A stretch of DNA of 64,000 nt from Tumebacillus sp. BK434 (GCF_004340785.1 NZ_SLXS01000003.1:157689-221688), one strand, 5' to 3'. Positions 7,898 through 37,059 are shown, counted from the first letter of the stretch. Program-made: numbers and translations. Notes: generated from the letters alone by a model not told the origin.

Positions 7898-9151
7898 ATG
7901 GCAATCCTGCCAAAGCTCGGACGCGCCATCTATGTACTGCTGGGCGGCATTTTGTTCACCCATCTCGGGTCGTACATGCTGCTGCCGTTTTTCGCGATCA
8001 TCCTGTCCACCGAAAAAGGGCTGTCGCTCGGCGCGACAGGGCTCGTGCTCGGCGCCGGCTCGATCGCATTTTTGACCGGAAGTCTGCTCGGCGGCTTTCT
8101 GTCCGACCGCTTCGGGCGGCGGATGACGATGGTCAGCGGCCTGTTGATCCGCGGGGCCGGGCTGCTTGGCTTCATCTGGGGAGCGTCTTTTTCCTCGCTG
8201 TTTCTGACCAACCTCGTGGCCGGGGTCGGCGGCGGCATTTACGCGCCGGGCGCGAAAGCGGGCATCGCGGCGCTGGCCTCGCAAGGCACGAAGACGACCG
8301 CCTTCTCCTACCGCGGGGTGGCGGCGAACATCGGGGTAACGATGGGCCCGCTGCTCGGGACGTATCTGCACACGAAGAGCTCCACGCTGCTCTTTGGCGG
8401 CTCGGCGGTCGTCTATTTTGTCTTGGCCCTGTCACACCTGCTGCTCTTGGAGCGCGACTGCCGCGGGGAAGATTGCCCGAAAGTCGACCGCCAAGGCATC
8501 AAGCAGATCTTGACCGACCGGCCGTTCTTGTATTTTTCGGTGGTGACGATCTTTGTCTGGGCGCTGTTCACGCAGTTCGCCTTGTCGCTGCCTCTGCGCG
8601 CCGCCCAGATCGATAGCGCACGCAACATCGGCCTGCTCTTCACCGCGTCGGCGGTGCTGGTCATCTTGCTGCAGGGCACGGTGACGCGCTTTTTCACGAA
8701 ACACCTCCACCCGTTGGGGACGATGGCGATCGGCATCTTGTTGATCGGCACCGGGCTTGGCTCGGTGGCGCTGTCCACCTCGTTCTGGCATCTGGTCGCG
8801 AGCGCAGTCGTCGTCACATTCGGCCAGATGTTTGTGATGCCGACGTCTGACGCCATCGTCGCCGACCTGGCCAAGCCGGAGCAGATCGGGAGCTATTTTG
8901 GCGTGGCGGCGTTCGTCTTTGGCGCAGGGGAGGCGCTCGGCAACATCGCAGGCGGCCAACTGATGGAACTGGCGGTAGCGATCGATTATCTGGCCCTGCC
9001 CTGGCTGCTCTACGGTGCGGTCGGGCTGCTGCTCGGCGGGACGTATTACCTGCTCCGGTTGTGGCAGCCGCTGGCCCGGCCGCTCGCACCCGTGACGGAA
9101 GAGCGGACGGAACACAACACGGGCCGCTGGCGACCGAAACAAAAAACGTAG
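7898..9151 (+). CDS. MFS transporter (drug efflux type)
   Basis: A 417-residue permease with about 12 hydrophobic segments. The cytoplasmic loop 2-3 motif is GGFLSDRFGRRMTM, the family signature of drug:H+ antiporters, and GVAANIGVTMGPLLG matches the motif C region of exporters. AAGGAGGAGGTG precedes the ATG. It is monocistronic with a terminator 7 nt after its stop. The substrate is unknown. Confidence 0.92.
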   Translation: MAILPKLGRAIYVLLGGILFTHLGSYMLLPFFAIILSTEKGLSLGATGLVLGAGSIAFLTGSLLGGFLSDRFGRRMTMVSGLLIRGAGLLGFIWGASFSSLFLTNLVAGVGGGIYAPGAKAGIAALASQGTKTTAFSYRGVAANIGVTMGPLLGTYLHTKSSTLLFGGSAVVYFVLALSHLLLLERDCRGEDCPKVDRQGIKQILTDRPFLYFSVVTIFVWALFTQFALSLPLRAAQIDSARNIGLLFTASAVLVILLQGTVTRFFTKHLHPLGTMAIGILLIGTGLGSVALSTSFWHLVASAVVVTFGQMFVMPTSDAIVADLAKPEQIGSYFGVAAFVFGAGEALGNIAGGQLMELAVAIDYLALPWLLYGAVGLLLGGTYYLLRLWQPLARPLAPVTEERTEHNTGRWRPKQKT

Positions 9152-9157
9152 CATGCA

Positions 9158-9197
9158 CTGGCACAGTCGACGCAAACGAGACTGTGCCACTTTTTTC
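9158..9197 (+). terminator. terminator
   Basis: Stem TGGCACAGTC / GACTGTGCCA with an 11-nt loop, followed by a T-run. It ends the MFS gene at 7898. Confidence 0.85.
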
Positions 9198-9239
9198 AAA
9201 ACATGATATGCTGATGGTAAAGATAGAAAGGAGTGACTT

Positions 9240-10424
9240 ATGAAACCGAATCGTTTGCTTATTTTGTTCTTATCAATCAACATCATCAACTATGTCGACC
9301 GCCAGATCTTGTCCGGCGTGTTCCCGCTCTTGAAGGATCATTTTCTGCTGTCTGACGCAGCGCTCGGCCTGCTCGGTTCGGCGTTTATGATCACCTACTC
9401 CCTCACCTCGATCCCGTTTGGCAAATGGGCCGACCGCTGGCTGCCGCACAAGGTCGCGGCGATCGGCGTCGCCGTTTGGAGCTTGGCGACCGTGTCGTCG
9501 GCGCTGGCCTGGTCGTTTGCCTCCCTGTTCGTGTTCCGCGCGCTGGTCGGCATCGGCGAAGCGGCGTACGTCTCGACGGCCGGCACGATCCTGTCGAACG
9601 CCTACCCGGAGCGCAAGCGTTCGGCGATCCTCGGGCTGTTCAACCTCGGCATGCCGATCGGCGGCGCGCTGGGCGTGGTGCTCGGCGGCTGGCTGGGCGC
9701 AAAATTCGGCTGGCAGTGGGCGTTTTTCATCGTCGGGGTGCCAGGCTTGCTGCTCGCCTACCGGGCATGGAAACTGCCGCTGCGCAAGCAGGCGGTGACA
9801 GAGCAGCAGCCGAGGTTCGGCATGGATGACCTGATCCGTCTGTTTTCGAAAAACCGGCCGTTCCTGTACACCTGCCTCGGCTACGCAGGCATCTCCTTTG
9901 CTTTTGGCGCGATCGTGCTGTTCGTGCCGACGTTCTTCGAGCGCTCGTTCGGCTACTCGCTGGAAAAAGCGACGCTGCTCGCCGGCGGCCTGCAAGTCGG
10001 CGCGGGCCTGCTCGGAGCGCCGCTCGGCGGTTGGATCGCCGACCTCTGGCTGAAGCGCACGGGGCGAGGACGAGCCTACACGCTGGTCATCTCGATGCTG
10101 CTCTCCGCCGTCTTCTTGTGGGTCGGGCTGTTTATGGAAAGCTTCCTCGCGTTCTTCCTCTCCGCGTTCTTCATGCTCTGGCATGTCGGCGTGGCGACGG
10201 CGCTGGTGTTCGACGTGACCGACAAAGCGATCTGGAACACGGCCGCTGCGGCGGCGATGTTCGTGATGCACTTCCTCGGCGACATCCCAAGCCCGTATCT
10301 GGTCGGCCTGATCTCCGACCACACGTCGCTCCTGTTCGCCTTCTCGCTGCTGCCGATCCCGATGCTGCTCGCCTCGTTCTGCTTCTGGAAAGCGGGCACG
10401 TACCTGCAGCGGAGACCTGCCTGA
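9240..10424 (+). CDS. MFS transporter, spinster-like group
   Basis: A 394-residue permease starting at ATG with GAAAGGAG upstream. NYVDRQILSGVFPLL at the start is the hallmark of the spinster (Spns)/hexuronate-like MFS group, followed by SIPFGKWADRW and the R-rich motif YPERKRSAILGLFNLGMPIGGALG. The substrate is unknown; some eukaryotic spinsters move lysolipids or sphingoid bases. It is a single gene ended by a terminator that overlaps its stop codon. Confidence 0.9.
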   Translation: MKPNRLLILFLSINIINYVDRQILSGVFPLLKDHFLLSDAALGLLGSAFMITYSLTSIPFGKWADRWLPHKVAAIGVAVWSLATVSSALAWSFASLFVFRALVGIGEAAYVSTAGTILSNAYPERKRSAILGLFNLGMPIGGALGVVLGGWLGAKFGWQWAFFIVGVPGLLLAYRAWKLPLRKQAVTEQQPRFGMDDLIRLFSKNRPFLYTCLGYAGISFAFGAIVLFVPTFFERSFGYSLEKATLLAGGLQVGAGLLGAPLGGWIADLWLKRTGRGRAYTLVISMLLSAVFLWVGLFMESFLAFFLSAFFMLWHVGVATALVFDVTDKAIWNTAAAAAMFVMHFLGDIPSPYLVGLISDHTSLLFAFSLLPIPMLLASFCFWKAGTYLQRRPA

Positions 10425-30084: not shown

Positions 30085-30114
30085 AGAACCCCCATCTGGA
30101 GAGATGGGGGTTCT
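30085..30114 (+). terminator. hairpin after queC, probable terminator
   Basis: A perfect 13-bp stem (AGAACCCCCATCT and complement) with a GGAG loop begins 2 nt after the queC stop. No clear T-run follows, so termination is likely but not certain. Confidence 0.6.
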
Positions 30115-30115
30115 G

Positions 30116-30357
30116 TGCGTCCTAATGCCTACTAGCCAGCGCCTTGAAGTTACGGCTAAGCGAAAATATCCGCTGCCATCCCATCCTGGGCACAAAGTCA
30201 GCACATTGACGACGCACAAATTGAAGAGACGTAGGCGTCCTTACCCGGCTCGACTTGACGGTCGTATGCTCCATATAGACCGAGTACAAGCACACCTAGT
30301 TTTAAAGCCAGTTGGGGTCTGCGACAGACTTCAGCCTATGGGGAACAGGGCTTTCTA
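30116..30357. other. unassigned intergenic stretch, possible mobile-element or RNA relic
   Basis: About 240 nt between queC and the RiPP-locus transporter. It has an open frame of 87 codons on the plus strand starting inside the hairpin, without a ribosome site. It also shows several short complementary segments, for example GGGGTCTGCGACAGACTTC. It marks the left edge of the AT-richer RiPP locus. I cannot assign a gene. Confidence 0.3.
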
Positions 30358-31626
30358 CTATCCTTGAAGACTCGAGGAGTGCGTGGTGTTTGTTTTCGAA
30401 TATTGGTATACCGCAATCATTTGGACAATCGCGGTAACGGCCAGTCCCACCGACGCAATCCAATACGCACCATGAAGGCCGAAGAGATGAAGAAACCCCC
30501 CTGAAATGACAGTTCCAAGAGGAAGGATCCCACCGACTACTGTTGTCAACATGCCGATAACACGCCCGTGCAGTTTGCTCGGAACGATTTTTTGCAAAAT
30601 AGTAAAAAAGAAATTGCCGGCTACTGCACTTCCAAGTCCCATAACAAACAAAAGCAGCATGTTGACATAGAGATTTGTTATCGCCGGGTAGAGCACAATG
30701 ACGATTTGAAGTCCTGAGAAAAGCACAAATCCTTGTTCAAGCGAAATCTTTTTGCTCACCCAACTCGACAGTATGTAACCTGCTACTGCACCGGCACCGA
30801 TCGATAATTCGAGCAAGCTGTATCCTCTGGCTCCTGCATGCAAAACAACATCAGACCAAGCGGCCGCAAGAATCATATACGGGATATACAGCACATTCTC
30901 TAAAATGAAGATGGGAATGAGCAAACGCAGAATTTTTAATTCCCAAGTGAATCGAAATCCTTGTACCAAGCTGTTCCACCAGCTCAACTGTTCATTCGTT
31001 GACCCATCATGCGGATCGGTCGAAGCGGAGGAATCATCGGCAGCTCTATTTCTCAAGATGGCAAACAGCGTCAATAAAGACAGCAAAATGAGAAAACTGT
31101 AGAATCCGAAAATTACAGATACCGGAACAAAACTAAGCAATACGGCGCAAGTGGATGCGGCGATGACACCGGCAAACCGTCTCACGCCCTGAATGAGCCC
31201 ATTCCCTGAAGCCCAATCAGACTCGGGCAAGATCTCAGGCACTAACGCTTGTGAAGCAGGTGAGGAAAGATTCCCAATTACGTTCATCAACAGATAGAGA
31301 CTCGCAATCACCCAAAAATTACCACCCTTTACCCCTACATAAATCGCAAGGATCAACACTAAGAGAAAGCGGATCGACTCAAAACGTATCATCACTTTCA
31401 AACGGTCTCCACGATCCGCGATCACACCGCCAAAAACGCTGATCAGTTGGGGAATCGACATCATGAGCCCTAACCAGAGCAAATACTGTGGATCATTGGT
31501 GCTGTCTTGTACAAACCAATACAAAGCAAATGCAAATAAGTTCATTCCGATTGCGGTTCCCGACTGACCAAGAAATAGAAAACGGAAATTGCGATGAAGC
31601 AGTGCACTTTTAATAACAATCACCAC
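30358..31626 (-). CDS. MFS exporter of the RiPP locus
   Basis: A 422-residue permease of the MFS_3/EntS-like group: FRFLFLGQSGTAIGMNLFAFALYWF, then FGGVIADRGDRLKVMIRFESIRFLLV and LSSPASQALVPEIL. Such transporters often export siderophores, macrolides or peptides. It is last after the precursor, radical SAM and LanB genes and has its own promoter. Base composition is clearly AT-richer than the genes on either side, like the whole locus. The start is uncertain: GTG at 31626 or 31623, both with a weak Shine-Dalgarno. Export of, or immunity to, the RiPP is inferred. Confidence 0.88.
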   Translation of the reverse strand: MVIVIKSALLHRNFRFLFLGQSGTAIGMNLFAFALYWFVQDSTNDPQYLLWLGLMMSIPQLISVFGGVIADRGDRLKVMIRFESIRFLLVLILAIYVGVKGGNFWVIASLYLLMNVIGNLSSPASQALVPEILPESDWASGNGLIQGVRRFAGVIAASTCAVLLSFVPVSVIFGFYSFLILLSLLTLFAILRNRAADDSSASTDPHDGSTNEQLSWWNSLVQGFRFTWELKILRLLIPIFILENVLYIPYMILAAAWSDVVLHAGARGYSLLELSIGAGAVAGYILSSWVSKKISLEQGFVLFSGLQIVIVLYPAITNLYVNMLLLFVMGLGSAVAGNFFFTILQKIVPSKLHGRVIGMLTTVVGGILPLGTVISGGFLHLFGLHGAYWIASVGLAVTAIVQMIAVYQYSKTNTTHSSSLQG

Positions 31627-31684
31627 CGTTCAAAAGGTTATTTTCATGTGTTTCATATTTTTAACACCGTAACCAGATACTCGC

Positions 31685-31714
31685 ATTATACTCATTCTAC
31701 ATCCAGTTTTTCAA
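31685..31714 (-). promoter_or_regulatory. promoter for the RiPP-locus MFS exporter
   Basis: Minus-strand TTGAAA, 18-nt spacer, TATAAT, placed between the end of lanB and the exporter start. It suggests that the exporter is also expressed independently of the biosynthetic genes. Confidence 0.65.
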
Positions 31715-31717
31715 CAT

Positions 31718-34700
31718 TTATCCCTGGCGTAAGGTTAGTTCTCGCAAAACTCTAAGCGCAAGAGCCAACAATTGCGCTTCTTTATCCCCACCGCCAATGA
31801 GCCTATTGATATGCAAATGCAGAAACGTCTCCGCCACGCGCTCAAGAAATGTTTCATTTCCTAGCCGAACAATGACCTTCCGATAATCAAAAATCTTGTT
31901 TCGGCGCTCCTCCATGATCCTCGCGATTTCCCCATGAATCCAATCTTCTTTCTCTTCTGCAAGCCGTATCAGTTGACTTCTTTTTTTGGCATATCCTTCG
32001 CGAGACGGTTTCATGGTAACAATCGATTCTAACCAACTCAATTGATCATTCCTGTCCGGAAAGAAGCACGTCATCATGTCCAAAACGGAGAAGACTCCCA
32101 AAGTCTCAAGATCAGCAGATTTACTATTCTTTGAAGAGAAGTCATGCAGAAAAACAGCAAGTCGGCTATCAGCTGCAAAGATTTTTTCAGCAGATTCAAC
32201 CGCCTCGAGTCCCCCGAAACGTTCAATTTCGCGTTCATAGGTGTCATACGACAGACGAAGCAATATCCCCTTTTGTTGCAGCGTGGATGCCCACTGAGCA
32301 AGGAGGGGGATGAGTTGATGGACCAGCAGTGAAGACTGACCATGGAATCGGAGACGAAGATGAGGTTCGGGTTCATCGAAACGAATGTAGTAAAACTCTT
32401 CGAACAATGCTTTGCTGAGGGCTTGTTCGCAAAATGCTTTTAGGTGTTTCCTCAGAAATTCATTCTGCTGACGATGCGGAATATAGAGCTTTGCGTAAAG
32501 CCACTCACTGCCTGTGAAAAAGGTTCTGTCTTTGATCTCACAGTCCGGCAGATATGTGCCCCACCTCAACTCCCTTGCTTCGGTCACGGCAGCAGCATCT
32601 GCTTTTTTTAGAAATGGAAAAACAAATTCGGTTGCATGACGCCCAACAGGCCCCTGACACCAAGACCCTTGCGGATCATAACAACATTCGGTCAAGGTGA
32701 GATACTGATGTTCTGTAAGTTTGTTGAACGCGTTCTGCAAAAGAGCGAAGTGGAGCTCATTATCCAAATCAAGCATCATCCGCTGATCTTCCTCAACAAG
32801 ATAGAGATAACGAGGTACCTTCCATTCCTCTCTCCAAGTTTGAAGATTCGAGAACTTTGACAGCCTCCATTGGGCCGGGGCGATCACGATCCTTTTGTAT
32901 CGGAGGCGTGGCAGGAATGGCGCCTGTTTCATATTCCCCCAATTCATGGGTTCCCACTGTTTAGATCGTTCGGTTGCTAGTTCCAACAGAAATCGATACA
33001 CATTTGGCACACCCACCAGATTCAACATGTGGTTGGTAACAGGAATTACTTCCCGATTGAGTGATCTTGATTTCAGGTAGAAAAATTCACCTGTACAACC
33101 GACCAGCAAATCTTCTAATGAAATCACGCGTTGATCCTGGTCCGAATGAAAGACACCTAACAGGATCTGGAAATCCCTTGAAGCCTGTGTAATGGTTAAG
33201 TTGGCATCGCGGTCTGTACATGGGAGAAAGATTACCTCGGCAAATATTGCTTCTGGCCGATGTGACTGTTCGGCCTGATGAATTTGCAGAAACTGTTCTT
33301 GCAAATTCAATTGTTCCGTCAGACTGAATCGCCCGAAACTTTTCCCCGCACCAAAAGAGCCGCTGTTTTCATTCAGCCATATCAAATAATCTCCACTGTT
33401 CAACGCTTCGACAGACTGCGCTTCAACAGAAGCATACAATTCCATGGAAAGCGGTGAGTGTGCAAACTTTGGCGGTACAGATTCAAGATTCGCTAATGTA
33501 TCGTCAGTGAGTTCGACTTCCAACTGCCGTTTTGCCACAGCCTGCATCGCCAAAGTCGTTACATACGTCTCCCGCATCCGGGATTGAGTTGCTGGCTTGG
33601 GATCGTATTCGCGATGGCCGGCAGGAAATTTGTAGAGTGCAGGAGAACCTAACCCCACCTCATCGTCCAGCAATTCTAGCAATGGCACTTCACGATCTCG
33701 ACCATATCGCTCCAAAAAATCATTTCGAAACCCTTGGAGATGCGGATTGCCAACCTGTCGGCAGGACAATCTCCAGATGATCTCGGCCGCGGCCTCCAGT
33801 TCTTTTTTGATCGATCCCGGCAGAGCGACCTCACATCCGTTTAACATGACATCCACTTGCAAAGGATGCTTCACATCTGCGAGGTCTTTCATCGATTTGC
33901 TTAGTTCCAAATATGTTGCTGTTCCTGTTCCCATTGGAATGTGATGATAGCTGGCAAGATCTCTGGAGACTGCCGCAAGCTTTTCCGTAATCTCGTCAAT
34001 CCCTTCGAGCGATACCAAAAGGTCCATCAAACGTGTGAACGGATGCTTGTTCGACAGTGAAGAACGCAATTCTGAGATCAAATATTCACGTTGAAGAAGA
34101 TCCTCTAGAAATCTGCGGACTTCCTTAAGATTGGCTTGTGTAAAACGGGCAGCTATTCGTTCCGTTAATGTTTCAAACGCGATCGGCTCTCCAGCTTCTT
34201 GTAGCGCAAATTCAACAGTTTGAGAACGATGCAGAGAACTTCTCATCAATGCGTGATGTTGCTCAGCTCTGCCGTACCTGTTCACATAGGGGAGTCTGAT
34301 CTTATTCCCCGCTAGATAGACGGCCGGGTTTGTTTGCACTCGTAATTGACGAATCAGTTCCGGCCGCGATTCAAGTTCCCTGATCAATCTCAATGTCCAT
34401 TCCATATCCGGCCTGGCATGCTTCTGATAAGAATCGAGCTGGGAGAACTGGAAAGCAGCCTGTTCCCTGTATCCGCCAACAGCGACCCCGGCAAACAGCC
34501 CATAGGGAGTGGGGCGTGTCGTCATCCTGATCAGATATCGAAGCAGGCTGTTTTCAATCTGGCTTCTTTTTCGGGGCTTGATTTCTTGTGATAGGCAGGA
34601 TAGAGAGTCATATAGTGAAGGACTTGCTGCGGCCAGCGCCTCGAGAACCGGTTTCTCTTCGAATGCACGATAAAGGTCCGCTGCCTTAACCGTATTCTCC

Positions 34701-34789
34701 CATACTTCTACTGGGAAAACGTTTGCCCGCACCAAATAAAAATCAGCAAGTCCGTATCGTCCGGCATTCCCCCAAGAAGTCTCGTTCAT
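31718..34789 (-). CDS. class I lantibiotic dehydratase (LanB), full length
   Basis: A 1023-residue enzyme with both parts of LanB. The N-terminal glutamyl-tRNA-dependent glutamylation domain (~1-740) shows RYLIRMTTRPTPYGLFAGVAVGGY. The C-terminal elimination (SpaB_C/thiopeptide-type) domain (~755-1015) shows EFYYIRFDEPEPHLRLRFHG and FLHLHINRLIGG. It should dehydrate Ser/Thr of the precursor to Dha/Dhb. GGAGG 11 nt upstream lies in the end of the radical SAM gene, whose stop is 6 nt away. No LanC cyclase or LanP protease gene follows. The gene is AT-rich relative to its surroundings, consistent with horizontal transfer. Confidence 0.95.
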   Translation of the reverse strand: MNETSWGNAGRYGLADFYLVRANVFPVEVWENTVKAADLYRAFEEKPVLEALAAASPSLYDSLSCLSQEIKPRKRSQIENSLLRYLIRMTTRPTPYGLFAGVAVGGYREQAAFQFSQLDSYQKHARPDMEWTLRLIRELESRPELIRQLRVQTNPAVYLAGNKIRLPYVNRYGRAEQHHALMRSSLHRSQTVEFALQEAGEPIAFETLTERIAARFTQANLKEVRRFLEDLLQREYLISELRSSLSNKHPFTRLMDLLVSLEGIDEITEKLAAVSRDLASYHHIPMGTGTATYLELSKSMKDLADVKHPLQVDVMLNGCEVALPGSIKKELEAAAEIIWRLSCRQVGNPHLQGFRNDFLERYGRDREVPLLELLDDEVGLGSPALYKFPAGHREYDPKPATQSRMRETYVTTLAMQAVAKRQLEVELTDDTLANLESVPPKFAHSPLSMELYASVEAQSVEALNSGDYLIWLNENSGSFGAGKSFGRFSLTEQLNLQEQFLQIHQAEQSHRPEAIFAEVIFLPCTDRDANLTITQASRDFQILLGVFHSDQDQRVISLEDLLVGCTGEFFYLKSRSLNREVIPVTNHMLNLVGVPNVYRFLLELATERSKQWEPMNWGNMKQAPFLPRLRYKRIVIAPAQWRLSKFSNLQTWREEWKVPRYLYLVEEDQRMMLDLDNELHFALLQNAFNKLTEHQYLTLTECCYDPQGSWCQGPVGRHATEFVFPFLKKADAAAVTEARELRWGTYLPDCEIKDRTFFTGSEWLYAKLYIPHRQQNEFLRKHLKAFCEQALSKALFEEFYYIRFDEPEPHLRLRFHGQSSLLVHQLIPLLAQWASTLQQKGILLRLSYDTYEREIERFGGLEAVESAEKIFAADSRLAVFLHDFSSKNSKSADLETLGVFSVLDMMTCFFPDRNDQLSWLESIVTMKPSREGYAKKRSQLIRLAEEKEDWIHGEIARIMEERRNKIFDYRKVIVRLGNETFLERVAETFLHLHINRLIGGGDKEAQLLALALRVLRELTLRQG

Positions 34790-34795
34790 ATGACG

Positions 34796-36160
34796 TTACG
34801 CCTCCGTTTTATGAAAAGTGGCTTGACGGTATCGCAAGCTCACATAATCTTCGAGTTTGCTTTTCAGCGGAGGACAGGGCCGAGCGCTTTCCTGTTCAAT
34901 CCGCACCAGTGGGCAGTATGCGCCATGGCAGATCGGGTGCAATTTGCACGATTGACACACTTTGTCGGAAAGTCCGTCCACCGACACCCACTGACTAAAC
35001 TTCATCTGATCAAGCTCCAACACACCGTCTGCATGCAGTTGCCCGACTTGATTGACCGGATTATTAAAAGCGACTGTACACTTGTAGATCATACCGTCAG
35101 AACCGATGACTAGAGAATTCGGTTTCGCTGCGTAACAGACGTTGTGATTTAGCAATGCATCCGAATACTTCTCTGAGTGAAGTCCCTGTTCGAGCCCGTA
35201 CCATGTTTCTTCCAATGCGATCAGGTTTGCATCTTTTGCTGTGCAAACAGGCAGGACTTCATCATTTTTACCGCCCCATTTCCCAACCGCATGCAAGTCA
35301 AATGTAAAGCGTGCGTCTGTTCCAAACGTCGTGACCAATTCATCCAGAAACACTCTGATATTCGGGGCATTTTCACTGGTAAAATTCATACGAATTTTGA
35401 TTTGTACGTCCAAATCAGAATCTCGGATGGAGATCAGGTTCGTCATGATTTGTTGATACGTGCCTTGCCCTCCCATTAAAATCCTGGTCTGGTCATGATA
35501 TTCTTCCGTACCGTCCACTGTAATTTGATACTTTGATACTCCCAGTTCAAACAATCTGCGAGCGCGATCGACCGTCAGCAAATATCCGTTTGTCGTCATG
35601 GTACCTAGAAAAGCTACACCGTTTGCAGTACAAATGTCATACAGTTTTTGGGATACATTCTCCACGACATCATACGCAACCAACGGCTCTCCCCCAAACC
35701 AACCTACCGTTAGAAAATCCCACTTCTCGATATTTCGTTGCACCCACTGAACCAAACTGCTTTGCAACTCTTCAGACATTTTCCCTTTCAAAAATTCCTC
35801 GTAGCAGTAAACACAGCGAAAGTTGCACTGCTCCGTAGGCATGATGATCAGTTGCTGTGAGGTTCCTTTATTGAACAACTCCTGATACTCGTGGCGGGTA
35901 TAGGCCAGCTCATTCAGATAACTCGGAACCAGAAATCCCAAATCAAATAATTTGGCGTGAGTATCCTGCAACGGGACGGCTGATTCGTAGTGATTTTGCA
36001 AGGCTGTAAAAGAAGCCGGTGACGTGATCATCTTGCCCGATGCGGTATTGTAGAGTAGGAACTTCCCTTTCGTATAATCATTCGGTTGGATTTCCACGTT
36101 ATACATCGACCACTTCACCTGATCCAAAATTGTCGTGCTTACTGCTTGGTTTTTGAGCAT
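34796..36160 (-). CDS. SPASM-domain radical SAM peptide maturase
   Basis: A 454-residue enzyme starting at ATG 36160 (MLKNQAV) behind AGAAGGGGTG; the longer open frame reads back through the precursor region and is not used. Residues 1-100 look like the N-terminal peptide-binding region of such maturases. The radical SAM cluster motif is EQCNFRCVYCYEEF (~115), with GEPLVAY-type GGE motif (WFGGEPLV). The C-terminal SPASM region has KCTVAFNN, VCQSCKLHPICHGAYCPL and a final CPP, enough Cys for auxiliary clusters. Enzymes of this type form thioethers or carbon-carbon crosslinks on RiPP precursors. It is between the precursor gene and lanB. Confidence 0.93.
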   Translation of the reverse strand: MLKNQAVSTTILDQVKWSMYNVEIQPNDYTKGKFLLYNTASGKMITSPASFTALQNHYESAVPLQDTHAKLFDLGFLVPSYLNELAYTRHEYQELFNKGTSQQLIIMPTEQCNFRCVYCYEEFLKGKMSEELQSSLVQWVQRNIEKWDFLTVGWFGGEPLVAYDVVENVSQKLYDICTANGVAFLGTMTTNGYLLTVDRARRLFELGVSKYQITVDGTEEYHDQTRILMGGQGTYQQIMTNLISIRDSDLDVQIKIRMNFTSENAPNIRVFLDELVTTFGTDARFTFDLHAVGKWGGKNDEVLPVCTAKDANLIALEETWYGLEQGLHSEKYSDALLNHNVCYAAKPNSLVIGSDGMIYKCTVAFNNPVNQVGQLHADGVLELDQMKFSQWVSVDGLSDKVCQSCKLHPICHGAYCPLVRIEQESARPCPPLKSKLEDYVSLRYRQATFHKTEA

Positions 36161-36196
36161 AGGTGCACCCCTTCTAATAGTCTTGTAAAGAGGAGA

Positions 36197-36225
36197 GGGG
36201 CCGGAAGTTACACTTCCAAGCCCCC
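36197..36225 (-). terminator. hairpin between precursor and maturase genes
   Basis: Stem with GGAAGT / ACTTCC at the loop and GGGGC / GCCCC at the base, located in the 79-nt gap after the precursor stop. Such attenuators let the short precursor gene be transcribed more than the enzyme genes. No strong T-run follows, so it would be a partial terminator or an mRNA stabiliser. Confidence 0.55.
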
Positions 36226-36239
36226 AAAAATTCATAGAA

Positions 36240-36341
36240 TCAACCGCACCCGCAGTTATTGATCGTGTTGGTTTTGTTTCGATCAGCCGGGATCTCGTTG
36301 ATCTCTTCGACTTCTTCAAATACAACGAATTGCGCCTCCAT
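36240..36341 (-). CDS. RiPP precursor peptide (33 residues) ending NCGCG
   Basis: ATG at 36341 with GAAGGAGGGAG upstream. The leader part MEAQFVVFEEVEEINEIPAD is acidic, and the last 12 residues are NKTNTINNCGCG. Thr24 and Thr26 could be dehydrated by the LanB, and Cys30 and Cys32 could form (methyl)lanthionine, sactionine or other thioether bonds with them or with neighbours. It is the first gene of the operon, directly before the SPASM maturase and LanB, which is the normal place for a RiPP precursor. Its size and the two-Cys tail differ from known lantibiotics. The core boundary is inferred. Confidence 0.85.
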   Translation of the reverse strand: MEAQFVVFEEVEEINEIPADRNKTNTINNCGCG

Positions 36342-36396
36342 TCGTCTCCCTCCTTCTCGTTAGTTTGAAGCAGTTATTGCGATCTGCTGATGCAAG

Positions 36397-36424
36397 TATA
36401 TATCCGATTATTTTTATAAATCAA
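36397..36424 (-). promoter_or_regulatory. promoter of the RiPP operon
   Basis: Minus-strand TTGATT, 16-nt spacer, TATATA, 56 nt upstream of the precursor start, in a very AT-rich stretch. It is the only plausible sigma-A-type promoter ahead of the precursor gene. Confidence 0.5.
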
Positions 36425-36509
36425 TGAAAAATTTCCATTTTTATAATAGAAAGCTATTAATACCCAAATATACCCCTCCTTATCAAGGACGGGGTGTTAT
36501 CGAGAACTT

Positions 36510-36952
36510 TTATTTCACTCCAACGCACTCTTTCGCAAACTCCAACGTAAGCTCGATGATCACGTGCATCTTCTCGTCGTCCGCCAGAATGTCAAAAACA
36601 TACGAGCCGCCTGAGCCGCCCCAGAAGACGCATTGGGCGAAGTCTTTGGCGTCTTTCAGCTTGGCCGTGGATGAAGAGGACGGTGGGACGCAGTTCAATT
36701 TCGCCTTCGTAGTAGATCGGCAAGTTGTACAGGCAGATTTTTTTCTCCTACTTGTCGACGGCCGCTTCTTCGCCGCTGCATCCGGCGAGTGCGCCCAGCC
36801 TCGGCCCCAGCACAAAACCGAAGTTTACCGACCAACTGTAAACTCATCGCCCGCACGATCGTCGTGATGATCGTCCCAAACAGCAGCGTGTAGCGAATCG
36901 GGTGAAATCCGCCAAAATAGCCATTCTTCAAACGTTCCAACATCAGATGCAC
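36510..36952 (-). pseudogene. decayed gene with MFS-transporter remnants
   Basis: On the minus strand from 36952 the first ~36 codons read like the N-terminus of a multidrug MFS protein (MERLKNGYFGGFHPIRYTLL, with RAMSL after). Beyond that, the recognisable text jumps between frames: an exporter motif (VNFGFVLGPRLGALAG), an internal TAG, then KICLYNLPIYYEGEIELRP and, in a third frame, DAKDFAQCVFWGGSGGSYVF to a stop at 36510. No single frame covers the region. The first part is a truncated transporter; the origin of the C-terminal part is unknown. It marks the right boundary of the RiPP locus. Confidence 0.6.
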
Positions 36953-37024
36953 ACATACAACGAATTAATTGAAATTTTTACTAGTTTTGATTCTACCAGT
37001 AGCAATGACATTTTCAACAACAAC

Positions 37025-37059
37025 ATAAAAACGGACTCGGGCACCCGCCCGAATCCGTT
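37025..37059 (-). terminator. terminator of the unit-1 MFS gene
   Basis: Minus-strand stem AAACGGATTCGGGC with its complement (one mismatch) and a GGGT loop, followed by TTTTTA, 27 nt after the MFS stop. Confidence 0.85.

What the first reader, a model, noticed from the sequence alone, without database searches (positions are those of the whole stretch)
30358..36341. Hybrid RiPP locus: SPASM radical SAM plus full-length LanB on a 33-residue NCGCG precursor
The precursor core NKTNTINNCGCG offers only Thr24/Thr26 for dehydration and Cys30/Cys32 as thiols. Combining a complete LanB with a SPASM maturase but no LanC is unusual, and predicts a very small product with thioether or crosslinked Cys. 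The AT-rich composition against GC-rich surroundings suggests horizontal acquisition.
Basis: partly seen in the sequence, partly recalled or inferred. Interest (0 to 1): 0.85.

Follow-up and report, generated by a model that had tools for sequence, protein, structure and literature searches.

The report
Hybrid radical-SAM and LanB peptide operon
A bacterium carries a horizontally acquired four-gene operon that appears to make a tiny modified peptide using two peptide-tailoring enzymes seldom found together: a radical enzyme that probably stitches cysteine to asparagine, and a complete lantibiotic-type dehydratase that can turn threonines into reactive residues.

Summary
On the minus strand lie a 33-aa precursor (36341-36240), a radical SAM/SPASM maturase (36160-34796), an intact full-length LanB (34789-31718) and an MFS exporter (31626-30358). 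They form a GC-poor island (46%, flanks about 57-58%) between queC and another MFS gene, an interval that differs entirely in two congeners. The precursor is real. The closest rSAM relative (Halobacillus, 60% identical) has the peptide ...FAEFEEVVELN...TNNCNC next to it, against the window's FVVFEEVEEIN...INNCGCG. Short peptides ending N-C-x(1,2)-C recur beside related rSAMs, including streptococcal ones whose N20xxC23 peptide fits NxxcA, a peptide known to carry an Asn-Cys beta-thioether. The rSAM therefore most likely makes an Asn29-Cys32 thioether. The LanB keeps its checked catalytic residues; its relatives are ordinary class I lanthipeptide dehydratases. It is absent from the other rSAM clusters examined, except for unrelated split LanBs on two Deinococcus plasmids. 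The nearest rSAM relatives carry a LanD-like flavoprotein instead. The LanB probably dehydrates Thr24/Thr26, leaving Dhb or closing a ring onto Cys30. The operon has no LanC, but the genome has two. Best filed as a new variant: a ranthipeptide-type maturase plus a class I LanB. No product chemistry was tested.

The parts
36240..36341 (-). Precursor peptide, 33 aa: MEAQFVVFEEVEEINEIPADRNKTNTINNCGCG; leader-like acidic FVVFEEVEEIN, C-terminal core NKTNTINNCGCG
   Evidence: RBS-bearing ORF; homologous peptide beside the Halobacillus rSAM; N29, C30, C32 invariant among 11 aligned NCxC peptides
36195..36226 (-). Hairpin between the precursor and rSAM genes; could act as attenuator or mRNA end, a common layout in peptide operons
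   Evidence: Predicted fold, z -1.66, modest
34796..36160 (-). Radical SAM/SPASM RiPP maturase, 454 aa, RRE-like N-terminus (about residues 14-80), CxxxCxxC 112-119, SPASM cysteines 342, 361, 402, 405, 411, 416, 429
   Evidence: Pfam PF04055; NCBIfam TIGR04463 219 bits, below its 525 cut-off; cysteine conservation in 38 relatives; AlphaFold model pLDDT 72, best PDB match the thioether-forming maturase CteB 5WHY/5WGG; reciprocal best hit of the streptococcal NxxC-type maturase
31718..34789 (-). Full-length LanB (glutamylation + elimination domains), 1023 aa
   Evidence: Pfam; aligns to NisB with the counterparts of R14, Y80, R83, R87, T89, D121, R784, R786, R826 and H961 kept
30358..31626 (-). 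MFS transporter (MFS_3/MFS_1), presumed exporter or immunity pump; possible own promoter at 31714-31685
   Evidence: Pfam; promoter-like site TTGAAA-18-TATAAT, 11/12; MFS proteins also lie in the Halobacillus and MAG clusters
36395..36424 (-). Promoter-like site upstream of the precursor (TTGATT-18-TATACT)
   Evidence: Consensus match only; number found not above shuffles
30113..37026 (.). Strain-specific GC-poor island between queC and an MFS gene
   Evidence: GC/GC3; the interval holds about 7.5 kb of other genes in congener G402 and about 32 kb including probable type III CRISPR-Cas genes in G403

Best explanation
This is a horizontally acquired RiPP operon of the NxxC/ranthipeptide type with an added class I lanthipeptide dehydratase. 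Steps: (1) the 33-aa precursor is made from the promoter-proximal gene; (2) its acidic leader (FVVFEEVEEI) is bound by the RRE-like domain of the rSAM enzyme; (3) the SPASM rSAM forms a beta-thioether between Cys32 and Asn29 (N-x-x-C, loss of 2 Da); (4) LanB uses glutamyl-tRNA to dehydrate Thr24 and/or Thr26 to Dhb (loss of 18 Da each); (5) Cys30, which has Ile rather than Asn at -3, stays free, is bridged by the rSAM, or adds to Dhb26 to close a methyllanthionine ring (unaided or by a LanC from elsewhere in the genome), giving two overlapping small rings; (6) an unidentified protease removes the leader and the MFS protein exports the product. Shown by sequence: the genes, their order, conservation of precursor and motif, intact active sites, island. 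Inferred: steps 2-6. Likelihoods: both enzymes act on this precursor about 0.7; Cys-to-Asn thioether by the rSAM about 0.6; Dhb formation at Thr24/26 about 0.65; a methyllanthionine ring onto Cys30 about 0.3.
For: Precursor: RBS and position; homologous peptide beside the 60%-identical Halobacillus rSAM, pairwise E 1e-4; N-C-x(1,2)-C tails enriched beside related rSAMs, 16 of 131 RBS-bearing short ORFs within 1.5 kb on the same strand, against 4 of 802 farther away (3 of those belong to one such cluster) and 2 of 743 in control loci, one of which is the window's own; N at -3 of the last Cys in all CxC-tailed peptides listed. rSAM chemistry: the streptococcal relative's peptide ...ATNYGCNSPC... 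has N20xxC23, fitting the Asn20-Cys23 link reported for NxxcA; its maturase's best hit in this genome is the window rSAM; seven SPASM cysteines; best structural match is CteB. LanB: complete, catalytic residues kept, coupled to the rSAM gene. Acquisition.
Against: No other locus seen here pairs this LanB type with this rSAM, so LanB action on this precursor rests on operon position and the two core threonines. The closest rSAM relatives work without LanB; the Halobacillus genome has none. The leader lacks the FDLD-type box of LanB substrates in the same bacterial family. The rSAM scores far below every NCBIfam equivalog cut-off, and a related rSAM clade sits beside a recurrent Cys-free peptide, so chemistry within the wider group is not uniform. 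Identity of L108 with the published NxxcB was inferred from the peptide, not checked by sequence. The SPASM part of the model is low-confidence.
Confidence: 0.55

Rival explanations
1. A plain NxxC-type ranthipeptide: the rSAM product is the final compound and LanB is a recent passenger that acts on nothing here or on another peptide of the cell.
For: Closest relatives (Halobacillus, MAG) have precursor + rSAM + MFS and no LanB; LanB was found beside this rSAM nowhere else in the Bacillota loci checked; the cell has other LanB/LanC genes.
Against: LanB is intact in all checked catalytic residues, its RBS overlaps the rSAM stop, and its codon composition matches the rest of the island. Both Thr lie in the core, with none in the leader.
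Confidence: 0.2
2. A lanthipeptide-like product in which rSAM and LanB cooperate: LanB makes Dhb24/Dhb26, both cysteines end in thioethers to Dhb, and the rSAM does another job (epimerisation, C-C crosslink, or action on Asn25/28/29).
For: LanB relatives are genuine class I lanthipeptide enzymes with LanC next door; two LanC proteins exist in this genome, one an orphan; T26-C30 and T24-C30/T26-C32 spacings allow rings.
Against: The rSAM's NCxC substrate class exists without LanB, which points to direct use of Cys and Asn by the rSAM. No LanC in the operon.
Confidence: 0.15
3. LanB provides glutamylation for another purpose (a transient tag or aminoacyl addition, as in PEARLs) rather than dehydration.
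For: LanB-like proteins are known that use aminoacyl-tRNA differently (PMC11002830).
Against: PEARLs are short LanBs lacking the elimination domain; this one has the full lyase domain with the R786/R826/H961 counterparts.
Confidence: 0.05

Closest known systems
NxxC RaS-RiPPs (NxxcA/NxxcB, Streptococcus; ranthipeptides with Asn C-beta thioether)
   Same: Related SPASM rSAM (reciprocal best hit, 37% over the core), very short precursor, N-x-x-C motif at the C-terminus.
   Different: The window adds a full-length LanB and an MFS exporter; its tail is NCGCG; no NxxC peptide with a dehydratase was found.
Class I lanthipeptides (NisB-type LanB)
   Same: Complete two-domain LanB with conserved catalytic residues; closest LanBs lie in class I lanthipeptide clusters.
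   Different: No LanC in the operon, no FNLD/FDLD-like leader box, and an rSAM instead.
rSAM + LanD-like NCxC clusters (Halobacillus L004, Bacillota MAG L005)
   Same: Same rSAM clade (100% SH-aLRT), homologous precursor, MFS.
   Different: They carry a LanD-like flavoprotein (and a B12-rSAM in Halobacillus) where the window has LanB.
rSAM + LanB clusters: Deinococcus plasmids (L031/L032) and the Mucilaginibacter lappiensis cluster of PMC9062424
   Same: Co-clustering of rSAM and a LanB-like dehydratase; the Deinococcus rSAM is 36% identical to the window's.
   Different: Deinococcus has split LanB, luciferase-like monooxygenase, M16 peptidases and longer precursors ending ...NIYKCGASAL / ...IDIYCRS; Mucilaginibacter has two rSAMs and six different precursors.

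Membership tests
NxxC-type ranthipeptide (NxxcA/NxxcB) | SPASM radical SAM maturase related to NxxcB | tested here: inconclusive
   Reciprocal best hit with the maturase of a Streptococcus-like genome (L108) whose peptide fits NxxcA (N20xxC23); the published NxxcB sequence itself was not at hand.
NxxC-type ranthipeptide (NxxcA/NxxcB) | N-x-x-C motif in the precursor core | tested here: met
   N29-C30-G31-C32; N at -3 of the last Cys in all CxC-tailed relatives. Cys30 does not fit (Ile27 at -3).
NxxC-type ranthipeptide (NxxcA/NxxcB) | Cys S to Asn C-beta thioether in the product | not testable with these tools
   Needs expression, MS/MS and NMR.
Class I lanthipeptide | LanB with glutamylation and elimination domains | tested here: met
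   Both Pfam domains complete; NisB catalytic residues kept.
Class I lanthipeptide | LanC cyclase encoded with LanB | tested here: not met
   None in the operon. Whole-genome search: LanC at G000:C4 (own lanthipeptide cluster), orphan LanC at C2:753747, and a match inside a large ORF at C2:717209.
Class I lanthipeptide | (Methyl)lanthionine in the product | not testable with these tools
   Needs MS/GC-MS.
TIGR04463 'rSAM_vs_C_rich' maturases | Score above the curated cut-off (525 bits) | tested here: not met
   219 bits: best-scoring model but well below cut-off.
PEARL (short LanB) | Lacks the elimination domain | tested here: not met
   Elimination domain present, 247 of 255 positions.

The most novel reading that the evidence does not exclude
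A hybrid 'lanthi-ranthipeptide': one 10-12 residue core carrying an rSAM-made Asn29-Cys32 beta-thioether interlocked with a LanB-derived methyllanthionine (Thr26-Cys30), laid out like nisin's overlapping D/E rings but made by two unrelated chemistries and without a dedicated LanC.
Probability: 0.2. Interest if true: 0.75.

Novelty: new variant of a known kind. Interest (0 to 1): 0.5.

Why it matters
The rSAM/NCxC-peptide core occurs with interchangeable tailoring enzymes: LanB here, LanD-like flavoprotein with or without B12-rSAM in relatives, split LanB plus flavin monooxygenase in Deinococcus. If the LanB acts on the 12-residue core, one very short peptide takes both polar (tRNA-dependent dehydration) and radical (thioether) chemistry. 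That would give a compact system for asking how two RRE-type enzymes share one leader and in what order they act, and a source of small multicyclic peptides. The mass shifts make it directly testable.

Tried and rejected
Rejected: rSAM start at TTG 36325 (it overlaps the precursor; the RBS-preceded ATG 36160 fits). Rejected: PEARL-type short LanB (full lyase domain). Rejected: CGCG as the conserved motif (N-C-x(1,2)-C is). Led nowhere: viral contigs hold no relative; PDB sequence search for the rSAM gives only the general SPASM group; NCBIfam/Pfam have no model for any of the short peptides; no paper in the library names TIGR04463 or NCNC-tailed peptides; OhkG/FlmE literature not found; the Halobacillus family (44 genomes) gave no second close rSAM copy. 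The LanB searches score only a few candidates per genome (one search missed the C4 LanB later found), so LanB tallies are lower bounds; LanB adjacency was tested by tblastn with the window LanB, which misses distant LanBs such as the Deinococcus one.

Full report
What is there. On the minus strand, a 33-codon ORF with a strong ribosome site (36341-36240) is followed by a radical SAM/SPASM gene (ATG 36160 to 34796), a full-length lanB whose ribosome site overlaps the rSAM stop codon (34789-31718) and an MFS gene (31626-30358). No other RBS-bearing short ORF lies in the intergenic space of the island. The composition claim holds: 46.4% GC against 58.3% and 56.8% on either side, GC3 about 0.5 against about 0.8 in neighbouring genes. 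Flanking genes are conserved in two congeners, but the interval between them is different in each: about 7.5 kb of other genes in G402, about 32 kb with probable type III CRISPR-Cas genes in G403. The operon is therefore a strain-specific, probably horizontally acquired island.

The precursor is conserved. The nearest rSAM (Halobacillus, 60% identical) has, 33 bases downstream, MANTPLLENETEGIDFAEFEEVVELNRDYSLASAADTNNCNC. It aligns with the window peptide over leader and tail (FEEV.E.N ... NNC.C; E 1e-4 for the single comparison). A Bacillota MAG (46%) has ...TNNSNCLCR. Other related rSAMs, including a second copy in the same genome (NTNCNC, twice), one in Streptomyces (NGNNCNC) and streptococcal ones (NYNCDCK, NNCNICTTP), sit beside short peptides with the same kind of tail. 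Near the rSAM and on its strand, 16 of 131 short RBS-bearing ORFs have it, against 4 of 802 elsewhere in the same loci and 2 of 743 in control loci. In an 11-peptide alignment N29, C30 and C32 are invariant.

What the rSAM probably does. It has the CxxxCxxC motif and seven SPASM cysteines, conserved in the 38-member set apart from truncated or misaligned members. In the model (pLDDT 72, only 7 sequences; SPASM region weak) the N-terminal ~70 residues form a winged-helix-like, RRE-type unit; the best solved relatives are the thioether-forming maturase CteB and anSME. The streptococcal peptide in L108 has N20-Y-G-C23. The literature reports an Asn20-Cys23 C-beta thioether for NxxcA of S. orisratti (PMC8326336; PMC13361665). 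The L108 maturase finds the window rSAM as its best hit in this genome. The window tail N29-C30-G31-C32 fits N-x-x-C; Cys30 does not, because Ile27 is at -3. In every CxC-tailed relative listed the last Cys has Asn at -3. I therefore infer an Asn29-Cys32 beta-thioether. This is inference by homology: the wider rSAM group also contains a clade with a Cys-free peptide beside the gene, so chemistry is not uniform.

What the LanB probably does. It is 1023 aa, with both domains complete. NisB residues whose change impairs or blocks dehydration (R14, Y80, R83, R87, R786, R826, H961; PMC4341554, PMC4979651) have identical counterparts at R21, Y85, R88, R92, R814, R857 and H991 (R14/R21 matched by motif, outside the printed alignment). 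Its relatives are class I lanthipeptide dehydratases, mostly with LanC next door and, in the same bacterial family, FDLDVQV-type leaders; it forms its own long branch among them. The precursor offers Thr24 and Thr26 only. I infer Dhb formation. A ring from Dhb26 to Cys30 (four residues apart) would overlap the Asn29-Cys32 ring. That is attractive but speculative, since no LanC is in the operon. The genome does encode LanC: one in a separate class I cluster and one orphan.

LanB is the accessory. Among rSAM-bearing loci from the Bacillota searched (checked) none has a window-like LanB nearby, and the Halobacillus genome has none at all. In the two nearest clusters a LanD-like flavoprotein with PHI and PASANT motifs stands in its place. 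Two Deinococcus plasmids pair a related rSAM with a distant, split LanB, a luciferase-like monooxygenase and M16 peptidases. A Mucilaginibacter cluster with two rSAMs and a LanB is on record (PMC9062424), and rSAM+LanC regions are reported in Bacteroidales (PMC10352776). So rSAM/LanB pairing is rare and seems to have arisen more than once; it is not without precedent.

Verdict. New variant of a known kind; no chemistry shown.

Noticed in passing
L004:3952-9478 (Halobacillus) and L005:3322-6877 (Bacillota MAG): rSAM + NCxC precursor + LanD-like flavoprotein with PASANT motif and MFS, no LanB; Halobacillus also has a B12-rSAM and its peptide ends in a free C-terminal Cys, suggesting oxidative decarboxylation of an rSAM-made thioether peptide.
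   Followed up: partly
L094-L103 (rSAM clade of Bacillaceae/Paenibacillaceae-type genomes), e.g. L095:8729-8815, L103:8899-8982: A recurrent short Cys-free peptide ending ...SKSVPGNLK lies directly downstream of related SPASM rSAMs; not matched to any described RiPP here.
   Followed up: no
L013 (G000:C5:32000-50000), 8228-9756: Second rSAM of the same group in the host genome with two tandem precursors MKLVKKA[MI]KRREAVANTNCNC.
   Followed up: partly
L031 and L032 (Deinococcus plasmids): rSAM + split LanB + luciferase-like monooxygenase + M16 peptidase + MFS with two short precursors each; looks like an undescribed RiPP system.
   Followed up: partly
L121/L122 (congener G403, queC-MFS interval): The same chromosomal interval holds Cas/Csm-like ORFs and repeat arrays in a congener, so it looks like an insertion hot spot.
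   Followed up: no
G000:C4 (L124:8954-15280), G000:C2:590789 (L060), G000:C2:753747 (L123): The host also has a class I lanthipeptide cluster beside NRPS-like genes, an orphan LanB and an orphan LanC.
   Followed up: partly
window 36424-36952: Broken coding remnants upstream of the precursor, partly similar to repeated sequence in congener G403 (80% over 102 bp).
   Followed up: no
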